A program made the translations under genes and the position numbers. The notes under the pieces are model-generated. The model saw only the letters and a program-made list of their open reading frames with translations, was not told the DNA's origin and ran no database searches. Positions 4,401 through 34,346 of a stretch of 64,000 bases of DNA are shown piece by piece. How positions within the stretch are numbered: the stretch's first letter is position 1; each line of letters starts with the position of its first letter. Source of the stretch: Mesaphorura yosii. Taxonomy: Eukaryota; Arthropoda; Collembola; Poduromorpha; Tullbergiidae. The stretch covers positions 52,554-116,553 of the forward strand of contig WIXG01000253.1 of assembly GCA_009869945.1 (NCBI GenBank), in the 5' to 3' direction.

Positions 4401-5850
4401 AAGTTGGAATTTCTCATTGCAAGTGACTCAACTTCAATTTCAAATTGCTTGGGGTCAAGATTTGTTTTTCAGACTCATCAAAACAATCGAAACTGGTGTG
4501 AACCAGCCCTCCTGTCCTGCAACGCAAAAGTTTGGTGGCATTGTATAGGCAGTCGCAGGCCAAAGAATGAGCATGAACGGCGTACACAAGATTTGGCAAG
4601 CAAACCGTAAACAAGCGAACGCGACTCACTATTCGTGATTGTTGTTGACATTTTCCCATGTTGCTGATTAATTATACACATTTTTGCAACGCAACAATGT
4701 CACCGAGCGCCAGAGATGATGATGAAGATGAAGACGGTGATCGAGATGAGGAAACTCGCATCGAGTCGCGTCGCAGCGGTCAACACAACAAGAAACTTGT
4801 TGAGGAGACAAACATCTGTTTGCTGTTTACGCTTTACGGCCACAATCTCATCCAGTCGGAGTCACAGAATGCAAGAGAGTCTCATCTGCGTACATTAAGC
4901 GTGAGTGAACGGAGATCGATGAGTAAATTGCAAGGCAATCCGCAATCGAACGGAACCAATCCTTACTTAAACCCTCTTACATTGTGGCTTCGCAGTGGCA
5001 GTGGCGTCCTTGCCTTGCCCGGCCGCAGATGACGTCTGCAACGCAGCTCAACGCAATCAGCATAAATTTTCACATCCATTCTAATTGCCAGGACTTGGAC
5101 TTGGGCTGGGACTTGTGAATGGGTGTAATTGTACCTCCGCTGATGCCGTAATAGTTATTAATAGCCCAATTTGCACATTAGCACAAAATTTATGGAAATT
5201 CAGCTCAGATTTATGTAAATTCGAACGAAACAGAACAGCATTTACGGATTTATGTTGGTGAAGACGGGCTGTGAATGCGGATATTTCTTGGCCTGGGCTA
5301 AACTACGCCCGTGGCCCGCGCAATTTGCACCCGAACGCTAATTTATGACCATGGCCGCGTTTCGTACGGAATGGATTGTTTCAAAATCTAATAACTTAAG
5401 TCATGTAATAATGTAATGTAAGTAATAATCATGAACCAAGTCAAGGCTTTTCATTTTCCATTTTGGATGACTCTAAATGAGAAGTCACTTGAATCTCAAT
5501 CTCGTCCTGATCTTGTGTCTTATCCTCAGTTCCTTCTTGATCTTTGGTTCTCGTATTGTGTGACTTTGTGTGTCCCCCGAATTGTATATATTTGAAGTCA
5601 ACGTTCGTGCACGTCCGTTCAACTCTTCGTCGGTAAATTTCCATAGTGGCGTGGTTGTGATTTGATTGTGGCCGGCCAAGTTGACTATCATCTTTCGCGT
5701 CGTGTTATTTGTGTTTACGCGTCCGTGTTCGCGTTTTGGGTTGAATTTTCGAATTCAATTGCCAATGCATTTACCGTGCAGTGCAACGCGTTCGAGTACG
5801 AAGAACAGCCAGAGGACGACGAGTACGAATGAGTTCTCTCTCGTGCTCGC
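1479..5850. other. Intergenic spacer between divergent transporter genes
   Basis: About 4.4 kb with no coding region I can support. Open frames here are short, lack consistent splice context and show no family motifs. The stretch presumably carries the promoter of the left-hand transporter near 1480-1700 and upstream control DNA for both copies. I saw no clear repeat family in it. Confidence 0.5.
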
Positions 5851-29899: not shown

Positions 29900-30425
29900 A
29901 TGAAAGTAAGTTCGCATCATAGTTCTTACGTGAGTACAAGCTTGTTTGCAGAAGTTCCAGCTGCAGTCAAATGCATTTCGAATTACCATTGCAGACGGCG
30001 TTTGTTGCCATTTTACTGGCCTGCGCGGCTTCCGCGCTAGCAGCTCCACAATTTCAGCCCCGGCAAGTCGTTGTGAAGCAGGTGGTAGAGAAGGTCGTTC
30101 CGTACACCATTTCGGAGTACAACGAGAAGAACCCCGATGGAAGTTACAGATTCGGGTAAGCATAGCAAACGTCAAACGTTGGCTCATGACTACAAGAAAA
30201 CTAAAGACTCATTCAGATGACCCGAATTATCTCAGATATGAATTAAGTGACGGCACCAAACAGCAAGAAGAAGGAACCCCACATTTGGTCGGCGACCAGA
30301 TCCGTGTGTTCGCAAGAGGCTTCTACTCGTACATCGACCCGGAAGGCCAGGTTCACACAAGAAACTATCAGACCGATGAAGCTGGATTCCATGTTCAGGG
30401 GAATGACGTTCATCCAGGATTGTAA
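29900..30425 (+). CDS. R&R (chitin_bind_4) cuticle protein, RR-1-like
   Basis: Secreted structural protein that binds chitin through the Rebers-Riddiford domain. Exons: 29900-29905 (only ATG AAA), 29995-30155, 30236-30425; 118 residues. A minute first exon followed by a signal-peptide exon is the classic layout of arthropod cuticle genes. The signal peptide MKTAFVAILLACAASALAA ends before APQFQP. The R&R core runs DGSYRFGYELSDGTKQQEEG ... GFYSYIDPEGQVHTRNYQ ... DEAGFHVQGNDVH. The exon 3 acceptor (CTCAG at 30231-30235) was chosen because it restores FGYELSDGT; nearby alternatives put extra or stop codons inside the domain. AATAAATGC follows near 30490. Confidence 0.9.
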
Positions 30426-30592
30426 AGCGAGAAAAAGAGTTCGACAGCCAAACGAACTTTCATAATGTTCATCTTAACAACGTGCCTAAAATAAATGCTC
30501 AATATATTTTTGTATGCAATTACTTATTTTAATCCTTCAATGAAGTCTTTCAATTAAACAAAGAAAGGGCCCAAAGCTGGTTGGATTTTGGA

Positions 30593-31386
30593 TTAGTGTT
30601 CGCCCGGAAAGTACTTCTTCACATCGATCTCCTCGTTGTCCATCCACCATGCTTCAATCAATTGCTCAATGTATCGCTGATTCATAAGCTTTTTAATTCT
30701 GCAAGATACCATTTGCGCTTGAATTAGTTCGCAAGTTGGCTTTACTTAGGAGTTGAAAGACTTACACTTCCGAAAATGGCTTTGTCAACTTGGAGCCTTT
30801 GGGAAAGCCAATTGCGTAATTGTTCACAAATTTTCCAACTCTGACTTCGAAAGTATTTGAAAAGTCGACGACAGCTTCTCGTTCCTTCGTCACTGTGAAG
30901 GCCGCAAGTCCAATGTCGACAACCTGTTTAGAATTAGGCAATTGCATTCGCAGTGGGCTATAATTTTGCGCCGTCGAATTAAGCCTGCCTTATTTTTCAA
31001 CACCCCGATGATTCCGTTCCATTCTTGATCCGCTTGGGACTGCAATTTTCCATACTCGCCTTCTACCGTCTCAACAATGAATGTGAAGTTTAGGTCTTGG
31101 GAAATCTTTTCAAGCAGCTGTATCATGAATCCCTTGAAGCAGACATTTTGCTTCTTTAAATTGGTCTTGACTGCCTCCGAAATCGAAACGGTGCAGTTTG
31201 CATCGGTGTACTCGTCCACAAATGGTGTGTCCTAAATTACGTCAGCTGTCATAACATTTCTTTAAGCGTGTAGAAAAATTACATAACACGTACGGTAATT
31301 ATCACAATTCGATGTATCTCCGGGCCCGACGCTCCAGATTCGTAGAAGATTGCCAGGCAAGCTAGCAAGCAGAGAAGAACCTTCAT
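30593..31386 (-). CDS. Secreted, shortened glutamate-receptor/SBP-type ligand-binding protein
   Basis: Exons: 31386-31294, 31231-30989, 30923-30766, 30698-30593; 199 residues. The signal peptide (VLLCLLACLAIFY) is clear. The next part matches lobe 1 of the ionotropic glutamate receptor ligand domain and bacterial family-3 solute-binding proteins: KGFMIQLLEKISQDLNFTF, NGIIGVLKNK, then DIGLAAFTVTKEREAVVDFS. The text then jumps to NYAIGFPKGSKL and a final helix ending EAWW, which belong at the end of lobe 2. About 100 residues of lobe 2 and all channel helices are absent, and no transmembrane segment is present. The intron between exons 2 and 3 appears to use a GC donor (AAG|GCAGG). It might bind a small amino-acid-like ligand extracellularly or be a decayed copy. 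Fold assignment confident, function not. Confidence 0.75.
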
Positions 31387-33463: not shown

Positions 33464-34201
33464 TTATGGGCAGAATACGACTTCGTAGCTGGAGGAGAAT
33501 GGGACTGTGCTCCTGCATGCAAACATGCTGGTTTCATCGTCATATGCATACGAGTATGCGTCCGGGCATTGATTCTTAAAGATTCTAGAGTAGTCCGATG
33601 GTTGAGGGCACGTGTCACGATTGTACGGAGGTTCCGGACAACAGTACTGCCCCTCCCTTGTCGCAGTGCACGCTGACTTGCAGGCCACAAGCTCTCCGTT
33701 TTTACCGTATTGCTTAAATTCGGCCGGGCACACGCCAAAAGTGAATGCGCAGTCTACATTCCTGCACTTGCTGTCCATATTTACCGTGCCGGATACCGGT
33801 CGAATGGATATCGGGAGGTTGAAACCGTCGACGAGACTGATGTCCCAAAAGTCGAGGTCGTTCCACTGATCGAGACCAAATTCAGCCAGCGTGACTGCAT
33901 CAAAAGTCGTCCGCGTCCCTCCGCACTGCAGCTGCCCACAATCTCCAGTGTCGCAGTTCTGGCCATTCGCGTCGCAACCAGTGCGTCCCCAAATTCGACC
34001 TGACGTCCACTTATTTATGGCCGTGAATGTTTGTGAGTTCCCCGAGTCCAGCCTAAATCCACCACCCAATGGAACATCGTTGTCTCCGTGTGTGCCAACC
34101 CACACGGTTTGCGAGCATTGATTCCTGACAGTGAATTGATGAGCGCCACTGGCGAGTGCCAAGACAGACAGGAAAGATAGGACTCTCAAAATCCTGTTCA
34201 T
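33464..34201 (-). CDS. Thaumatin-like protein (PR-5 family)
   Basis: Single coding exon, 245 residues, with a signal peptide (LRVLSFLSVLALASG). The mature protein carries 16 cysteines, the full complement for eight disulfides of a long-form thaumatin-like protein. It has the family segments QFTVRNQC, WGRTGC, TGDCG, TLAEF, DFWDISLVDGFNLPI, CRNVDC, CKSAC, CCPEPPYNRDTC and the C-terminal MFAC...VVFCP. These also supply acidic residues lining the inter-domain cleft. In plants the family acts in defence, with some members cleaving beta-1,3-glucan; animal members occur in several arthropods. A 62 bp intron (34219-34280) lies in the 5' UTR. The downstream (lower-numbered) stretch 33167-33463 holds no gene. 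Confidence 0.93.
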   Translation of the reverse strand: MNRILRVLSFLSVLALASGAHQFTVRNQCSQTVWVGTHGDNDVPLGGGFRLDSGNSQTFTAINKWTSGRIWGRTGCDANGQNCDTGDCGQLQCGGTRTTFDAVTLAEFGLDQWNDLDFWDISLVDGFNLPISIRPVSGTVNMDSKCRNVDCAFTFGVCPAEFKQYGKNGELVACKSACTATREGQYCCPEPPYNRDTCPQPSDYSRIFKNQCPDAYSYAYDDETSMFACRSTVPFSSSYEVVFCP

Positions 34202-34346
34202 GTTGAAGTTCGTGGAATCTGAAATAGCAAAAACAAATTAATTTTAATTACAAGCTGGACTTCTTTCGTCATGGGCTTACCTGGTTGAAGATTACGAGCA
34301 GATTAATTGGTACTAGAATGTTGCGATAAAGCTCTAAATGAGCTTC

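What the first reader, a model, noticed from the sequence alone, without database searches (positions are those of the whole stretch)
30593..31386. Secreted, channel-less glutamate-receptor-type ligand domain missing most of lobe 2
Lobe-1 motifs (GFMIQLLEKIS, NGIIGVLK, VTKEREAVVDFS) are followed within one exon by end-of-lobe-2 motifs (YAIGFPKGS ... EAWW). About 100 residues and all TM helices are absent, yet the signal peptide and all four exons stay in frame. A compact one-and-a-half-lobe binding protein would be unusual. It may be a secreted small-molecule binder or a decoy; degeneration is the alternative.
Basis: partly seen in the sequence, partly recalled or inferred. Interest (0 to 1): 0.75.

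Follow-up and report, generated by a model that had tools for sequence, protein, structure and literature searches.

The report
Secreted single-lobe chemoreceptor-derived protein
A small arthropod-like gene appears to encode the upper half of a smell-receptor subunit's ligand-binding clamshell, cut out at the hinge and given a secretion signal, which would be a natural version of a one-lobed binding protein known mainly from engineered constructs.

Summary
The feature is real and at the stated coordinates: a four-exon minus-strand gene for an intact 199-residue protein with a signal-like N-terminus and no channel. The end motifs YAIGFPKGS...EAWW return to lobe 1. Aligned to GluA2 the protein covers 27-106 and 217-264 and lacks 107-216; the join falls on the published D1-D2 hinge strands. 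It is therefore lobe 1 (D1) alone. All three introns match, in position and phase, those of the genome's own Ir25a co-receptor gene, its closest pairwise relative (68 of 155 residues). Exon 3 is the start of one Ir25a exon fused to the end of a later one. Silent sites are near saturation yet the frame is open. Residues invariant in seven Ir25a-type rows were lost mostly at the former hinge (8 of 10) rather than elsewhere (15 of 39). No other single-lobe form was seen among the loci read in this genome or among the 120 listed of 265 short relatives. Expression, folding and ligand are untested, the tree is unresolved, one splice donor is GC. New variant of a known kind.

The parts
31294..31386 (-). 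Exon 1: start codon, signal-like N-terminus (about residues 1-20, MKVLLCLLACLAIFYESGAS) and first beta strand of lobe 1 (EIHRIVIIT)
31232..31293 (-). Intron 1, 62 bp, GT-AG, phase 0, same position as in the genome's Ir25a (RIVIIT|DTPF vs RVVTVV|QPPF)
30989..31231 (-). Exon 2: most of the S1 half of lobe 1, with cysteines C44 and C62 and Tyr91 (GEYG)
30924..30988 (-). Intron 2, 65 bp, GC-AG (AAG|GCAGGC), phase 0, same position as in Ir25a (LKNK|VVDIG vs LKDR|QADIA)
30766..30923 (-). Exon 3, fused: end of S1 (VVDIGLAAFTVTKEREAVVDFSNTFEV) joined to end of S2 (VGKFVNNYAIGFPKGSKLTKPFSEV)
30819..30848 (-). Merged hinge, residues 138-147 (EVRVGKFVNN); likely junction at V141-G142 (30839-30834)
30879..30896 (-). 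Lobe-1 half of the ligand site, T122 (30896-30894) to R127 (30881-30879), equivalent to GluA2 T480 and R485 (numbers recalled)
   Evidence: alignment; coordinates numbering
30699..30765 (-). Intron 3, 67 bp, GT-AG, phase 2, same position and phase as in Ir25a
30593..30698 (-). Exon 4: C-terminal helices of lobe 1 (IKKLMNQRYIEQLIEAWW), short tail, stop TAA at 30595-30593; the cysteine that follows this helix in Ir25a is absent
30528..30533 (-). ATTAAA, possible polyadenylation signal 60 bp after the stop
   Evidence: read

Best explanation
The gene encodes a secreted protein that is only lobe 1 (D1) of an Ir25a-type ionotropic-receptor ligand-binding domain. SHOWN by sequence: intact gene model; signal-like N-terminus; lobe 1 complete by alignment; lobe 2 and the channel helices absent; intron positions and phases shared with the own Ir25a; the join at the hinge strands. 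INFERRED origin: a duplicate of an Ir25a-type gene lost the amino-terminal domain, then about 1-1.5 kb between the two hinge sites (lobe 2 plus M1-M3), and everything after the last lobe-1 helix. INFERRED mechanism: the discontinuous lobe folds by itself and uses its retained half-site (Tyr91, Thr122, Arg127) to bind a small amino-acid-like or carboxylate ligand outside cells, rapidly and reversibly, without the clamshell closure that would gate a channel. It would act as a soluble carrier, buffer or sink for a receptor ligand.
For: Pfam hits. Two-block alignment to GluA2 LBD omitting 107-216 (the second block alone has i-Evalue 0.0048). GluD2 hinge strands HS1 Asp542-Ser544 and HS2 Val761-Gly769 (PMC5384001, passages) coincide with the junction. 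Intron sharing with the own-genome Ir25a in position and phase, three of three. Best pairwise match 68 of 155 to that Ir25a, score 293; next 229 (an Ir25a of another animal); other receptors of this genome at most 127. In the own Ir25a 257 residues lie between the two hinge points, 1.0 kb apart to its first cassette exon. Selection signs: 18 of 26 fourfold sites in conserved codons differ, so these silent sites are near saturation; GC3 0.548 equals the Ir25a lobe 1 (0.548), while introns are 0.392 and upstream DNA 0.379. In a neutral simulation the chance of no stop is 0.001 or less at 0.4 or more substitutions per site. Columns invariant in seven Ir25a-type rows are lost in 8 of 10 hinge positions but 15 of 39 elsewhere, Fisher p 0.03. 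The cysteine after the last lobe-1 helix is gone along with lobe 2. Precedent: the engineered D1 of Thermotoga ArgBP is stable, has a crystal structure and binds arginine at 3.4 uM as a Phe-to-Trp variant (PMC7589609); in LAO, ArgBP and HisJ one isolated lobe binds ligand with lower affinity, and in many type II proteins almost all binding residues sit in one lobe, mostly the discontinuous one (PMC10601554, passages).
Against: No transcript, no orthologue in a second species, no structure prediction. Intron 2 has a GC donor with a weak context. GluA2's Pro478 is replaced by Ala, and iGluRs normally use lobe 2 contacts as well. The isolated halves of ribose-binding protein (a type I protein) fold but do not retain ribose binding (PMC10601554, passages). 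The best trees do not place the protein with Ir25a but beside a long-branch receptor (L043, support 87/85, not starred); an Ir25a clade is not rejected (p-AU 0.25, 0.21; with the own Ir25a alone 0.19). GC3 is not uniform among genes here (a single-exon IR has 0.436, thaumatin 0.584), so it is weak evidence. The first cassette exon of the own Ir25a has Lys-Gly, not Val-Gly, at the second hinge point. The simulation and saturation results would also be met by a gene that was constrained for long and decayed only recently.
Confidence: 0.4

Rival explanations
1. Receptor partner or decoy: the secreted lobe 1 pairs, through the lobe-1 face that iGluR subunits use to form LBD dimers, with the ligand-binding layer of Ir25a-containing receptors, and so modulates, stabilises or blocks them.
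For: LBD dimers form by contacts across D1 lobes (PMC3866869, passage). Helix D (KEREAVVDF) and the C-terminal helices (23 of 46 identical to the own Ir25a) are kept. Engineered halves of another binding protein show a monomer-dimer equilibrium (PMC9815098, passages).
Against: The C-terminal block is only slightly better conserved than the rest (50% against about 41%, counts). No interface residue was tested, and co-expression is unknown.
Confidence: 0.25
2. Degenerate receptor fragment: a truncated Ir25a duplicate that still looks intact but is not expressed or no longer does anything.
For: GC donor in intron 2; 23 of 49 residues invariant among seven Ir25a-type rows are changed; no second copy and no orthologue found at the sensitivity used.
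Against: Open frame in four exons, GT-AG at two of three introns, coding-type base composition, near-saturated silent sites, neutral decay improbable, cuts at domain edges: before S1, at the hinge, after the last lobe-1 helix.
Confidence: 0.27
3. Assembly or gene-model artefact: a full receptor whose lobe-2 and channel exons were lost in assembly or lie elsewhere.
For: Only one assembly is available.
Against: Introns of 62-67 bp leave no space; the fusion lies inside one open exon; the sequence is only 44% identical to the own Ir25a, so it is not a misassembled Ir25a; none of the 85 Lig_chan matches is on contig C253.
Confidence: 0.04

Closest known systems
Ionotropic receptor 25a (Ir25a), same genome G000:C26 (L010), and animal Ir25a generally
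   Same: Lobe-1 sequence (68 of 155 identical to the own Ir25a), three intron positions and phases, C62 aligned to a cysteine of the own Ir25a, C-terminal LLNQR..LEQLKE.WW helix motif
   Different: No amino-terminal domain, no M1-M4, no lobe 2, no co-receptor extra loop near the start of S2 (CREL, PMC6472016, passages), hinge residues changed; short secreted chain
Engineered isolated D1 of Thermotoga maritima ArgBP (and isolated lobes of LAO-binding protein and HisJ)
   Same: Discontinuous lobe 1 of the same domain superfamily (SBP_bac_3 matches here at 1.9e-12), lobe 2 removed (LAO and HisJ only via PMC10601554)
   Different: Those are laboratory constructs from bacterial two-lobed proteins; this one appears natural, animal, and derived from a channel subunit
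Rhodothermus marinus single alpha/beta-domain substrate-binding protein (Bae et al. 2018)
   Same: Reported natural single-domain substrate-binding protein
   Different: Bacterial; known to me only from a citation in PMC10601554, the paper itself was not seen

Membership tests
Ionotropic receptor / iGluR (as a receptor channel) | S1 part of the ligand-binding domain | tested here: met
   Lig_chan-Glu_bd 1.7e-21, residues 27-138
Ionotropic receptor / iGluR (as a receptor channel) | Pore and transmembrane helices (Lig_chan) | tested here: not met
   No PF00060 listed for the protein (E up to 10, filters apply) nor on contig C253 among 85 matches; no second stretch as hydrophobic as a usual TM helix
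Ir25a orthologue | Shared gene structure with Ir25a | tested here: met
   Three of three introns same position and phase; acceptor-like sites at the places of introns 1 and 3 also occur in L043, so these are not unique to Ir25a
Ir25a orthologue | Clade with Ir25a in a tree | tested here: inconclusive
   Not in the best trees; not rejected, p-AU 0.25 and 0.21
Ir25a orthologue | Amino-terminal domain and co-receptor extra loop | tested here: not met
   Protein starts at S1 and lacks the start of S2 (CREL location from PMC6472016)
Two-lobed periplasmic-type binding protein (SBP_bac_3) | Two lobes joined by two hinge strands | tested here: not met
   GluA2 107-216 has no counterpart; hinge strands merged
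Single-lobe (discontinuous lobe 1) binding protein | Both chain segments of lobe 1 present and joined at the hinge | tested here: met
Single-lobe (discontinuous lobe 1) binding protein | Folds alone and binds ligand | not testable with these tools
   Spliced protein not submitted to structure prediction (tool rule: letter for letter from the DNA); no binding data
Pseudogene | Stops, frameshifts or lost splice sites | tested here: not met
   No stop or frameshift in 199 codons; all three introns end in AG, two begin GT and one GC

The most novel reading that the evidence does not exclude
An arthropod has turned a chemosensory co-receptor into a free, one-lobed extracellular protein by cutting exactly at the hinge of the clamshell. 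This would be a natural single-lobe ligand binder (or receptor-pairing decoy) and the reverse of the proposed lobe-duplication origin of the binding-protein fold.
Probability: 0.4. Interest if true: 0.8.

Novelty: new variant of a known kind. Interest (0 to 1): 0.6.

Why it matters
Whether one lobe of a clamshell binding domain can be a working protein on its own bears on how periplasmic-binding-protein and glutamate-receptor domains arose, and the evidence seen here rests mostly on engineered halves. A natural, intact, secreted lobe 1 with near-saturated silent sites would make that testable in an animal. It would also add a soluble component to ionotropic-receptor chemosensing; the rows listed by the ten paper searches made here show none of this kind by title and start of abstract.

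Tried and rejected
First-reader model of one and a half lobes: rejected, because the C-terminal block aligns to GluA2 217-264, part of lobe 1. Hidden extra exon: rejected by intron lengths. Parent other than Ir25a: L043 (a long-branch IR) is favoured by the trees and has acceptor-like sites at the places of introns 1 and 3, but its intron 2 lies one codon off and its C-terminal block matches poorly (9 of 45 against 23 of 46 for Ir25a); I treat its tree position as long-branch attraction, which is a judgement. In one search L043's lobe-1 row lacked part of its C-terminal block; one search repeated the tree with it added and with L044 dropped as a long branch, and the outcome was the same. One search left out 13 of the 42 loci then held, as duplicates. 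Alignment A1 has 8 rows: the short protein, the own Ir25a and 6 of the 120 proteins listed, of which two (P0064, P0098) carry no Ir25a name; the trees used 8 of those 120. In A1 the join of the seven Ir25a-type rows was chosen by me at the hinge, so the hinge test rests on that choice; its wider window was chosen after seeing the data.

Short relatives: phmmer with the 199 aa gave 165 candidates, none at 1e-3. The A1 profile gave 265 hits of limited length; the 120 listed were checked and 0 of 120 carried the C-terminal lobe-1 block. The database holds named animal proteins, but the search needs shared 5-residue words, so distant relatives could be missed.

Other single-lobe copies in the genome: (exons 3 and 4) gave five matches, two of them this gene, none a second fusion. 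12 of 63 Lig_chan-Glu_bd hits had no Lig_chan hit within 4 kb, ours among them. Five of the other 11 (C684, C7, C117 and two on C341) were read by eye and show transmembrane-like or S2 segments downstream. The remaining six (C361, two on C215, C363, C1, C786) lie in open frames of 448-735 codons and were not read further, except that C361 has an S2-like stretch. Both family searches score only the best candidates.

NCBIfam gave only matches below cut-off, four of five to amino-acid-binding-protein models; PHROGs none. Paper searches: one search found no paper; searches listed nothing relevant by title and start of abstract. Passages of PMC8429746 and PMC7738191 added nothing used here.

Full report
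What is there. On the minus strand at 31386-30593 lies a four-exon gene (31386-31294, 31231-30989, 30923-30766, 30698-30593) of 600 nt for 199 residues plus stop. Introns are 62 bp GT-AG, 65 bp GC-AG and 67 bp GT-AG (one search listed exon 4 one base too long, corrected). The N-terminus MKVLLCLLACLAIFYESGAS is hydrophobic with small residues at a plausible cleavage site, judged by hydropathy and eye; no later stretch reaches the hydrophobicity usual for a transmembrane helix, the highest being 1.47 over 19 residues inside lobe 1. The Pfam matches are Lig_chan-Glu_bd 1.7e-21 and SBP_bac_3 1.9e-12.

It is one lobe, not one and a half. Against GluA2 (8i0b) residues 58-137 align to 27-106 and residues 145-192 to 217-264, and 107-216 have no counterpart. 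The second block is weak on its own (i-Evalue 0.0048) and not significant against GluD1 (200), but SBP_bac_3 spans both parts (residues 59-183) and the own Ir25a matches this block at 23 of 46. In this fold the chain leaves lobe 1 once and comes back, so the last block (YAIGFPKGS to WW) is part of lobe 1; this is established knowledge of the iGluR ligand-binding domain. The hinge was defined in GluD2 as Asp542-Ser544 and Val761-Gly769 (PMC5384001, passages read). In the alignment to GluD1 the short protein's EVRVG sits on the first hinge strand and VGKFVN on the second, so the two are merged into about ten residues, 138-147. Lobe 2 and M1-M3 are gone; so are the amino-terminal domain before S1 and everything after the last lobe-1 helix.

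Where it came from. The best match in the genome is a full-length receptor on contig C26 (L010). Its five best database hits are insect proteins, most of them named Ir25a, at 66-70% identity. In an in-silico lobe-1-only comparison the short protein matches it at 68 of 155 residues (score 293); the next best are Ir25a-type proteins of other animals (229 and lower), and other receptors of the same genome score 127 or less. All three introns share position and phase with that Ir25a. Acceptor-like sites at the places of introns 1 and 3 also occur in another receptor of the genome, L043, whose intron 2 is one codon away, so intron sharing alone does not single out Ir25a. Exon 3 equals the 5' part of the Ir25a exon containing ...DFTVPYYDLVG joined to the 3' part of the exon containing ...GEEFSRKPYAIAV. 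At the first hinge point Val-Gly is present in the own Ir25a and in the 12 database rows aligned; at the second it is Val-Gly in 11 of those 12 (Ile-Gly in P0001), Val-Gly in the second of two cassette exons of the own Ir25a and Lys-Gly in the first. In the own Ir25a 257 residues and 1.0 kb (first cassette) or 1.5 kb (second) lie between the two points. A deletion between the two short matching stretches is the simplest origin, an inference. Trees do not settle the parentage: the best trees put the short protein beside L043, a very long branch, and an Ir25a clade is not rejected (p-AU 0.25, 0.21; with the own Ir25a alone 0.19).

Is it alive. For: a clean frame; GC by codon position 0.48/0.295/0.545; GC3 0.548, the same as the own Ir25a lobe 1, against 0.392 in its introns and 0.379 upstream, though two other genes here have 0.436 and 0.584. 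In codons that still encode the same residue, 18 of 26 fourfold sites differ from Ir25a, so these silent sites are near saturation. In a neutral simulation (4000 runs per level) a 597-nt frame that has taken 0.4 substitutions per site stays free of stops in 0.1% of runs; how much of the divergence lies on this lineage is unknown. Of 49 columns invariant in seven Ir25a-type rows the short protein keeps 26. The losses fall on the former hinge (8 of 10) more than elsewhere (15 of 39; Fisher p 0.03; a wider window chosen afterwards gives 12 of 15 against 11 of 34, p 0.004). That is the pattern expected if lobe 1 is kept and its contact with lobe 2 is released. The cysteine that follows the last helix in Ir25a is gone together with lobe 2. 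Of the two cysteines of the mature chain, C62 aligns to a cysteine of the own Ir25a, and C44 lies near another in a loop of different length. Against: the GC donor of intron 2, about half of the invariant residues changed, one genome only and no expression data.

How it may work. The lobe-1 side of the iGluR ligand site is kept at three of four positions: Tyr91, Thr122 and Arg127 align to GluA2 Tyr450, Thr480 and Arg485, and Ala120 replaces Pro478 (alignment; GluA2 numbers recalled). At the Thr position all seven Ir25a-type rows of A1 have Ser; at the Tyr position four have Phe, two (the own Ir25a among them) Tyr and one Leu, as aligned. The isolated D1 of the bacterial arginine-binding protein TmArgBP is stable, its structure was solved, and a Phe-to-Trp variant binds arginine at 3.4 uM reversibly (PMC7589609, abstract and sections 2.3 and 2.4 read). 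In LAO, ArgBP and HisJ one isolated lobe binds with lower affinity, and in many type II proteins almost all binding residues are in one lobe, mostly the discontinuous one; but the halves of the type I ribose-binding protein do not retain binding (PMC10601554, passages). A soluble, fast, reversible small-ligand binder is therefore my leading mechanism. The chief functional rival is pairing with receptor ligand-binding domains through the lobe-1 dimer face (PMC3866869, passage).

How common. A search of 5.8 billion proteins gave no relative of similar length at 1e-3. A profile search gave 265, of which the 120 listed contain no form with the C-terminal lobe-1 block (0 of 120). Within the genome no second fusion was found, and the five other receptor-like hits without a nearby channel match that were read have channel-like or S2 segments (six more left unread). 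The rows listed by ten paper searches show no natural single-lobe ionotropic receptor by title and start of abstract; most subscription papers are not in that library.

Verdict. An intact-looking gene for a secreted single-lobe derivative of an Ir25a-type co-receptor: a new variant of a known kind. Function is plausible but unproved.

Noticed in passing
L010 (G000:C26:342500-352000), about 4722-4862 and 5200-5330: The genome's Ir25a gene carries two tandem versions of the exon for the second hinge strand and the YAIAVQKGS / YALAVQQGS segment, both with phase-2 GT donors, so they look like mutually exclusive cassette exons that would change the hinge of the co-receptor.
   Followed up: partly
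G000 contigs such as C281, C47, C347, C215, C419: IR-like open frames of about 640-750 codons without introns sit beside multi-exon receptors: an apparent expansion of single-exon IRs in a 93 Mb genome.
   Followed up: no
window 33464-34237: Thaumatin-family protein of 245 residues with a signal-like N-terminus, on the minus strand (Pfam 2.9e-61).
   Followed up: no
window 29900-30425: Insect-type cuticle protein gene (Chitin_bind_4, 4.7e-17), convergent with the gene of interest and ending about 170 bp from its stop codon.
   Followed up: no
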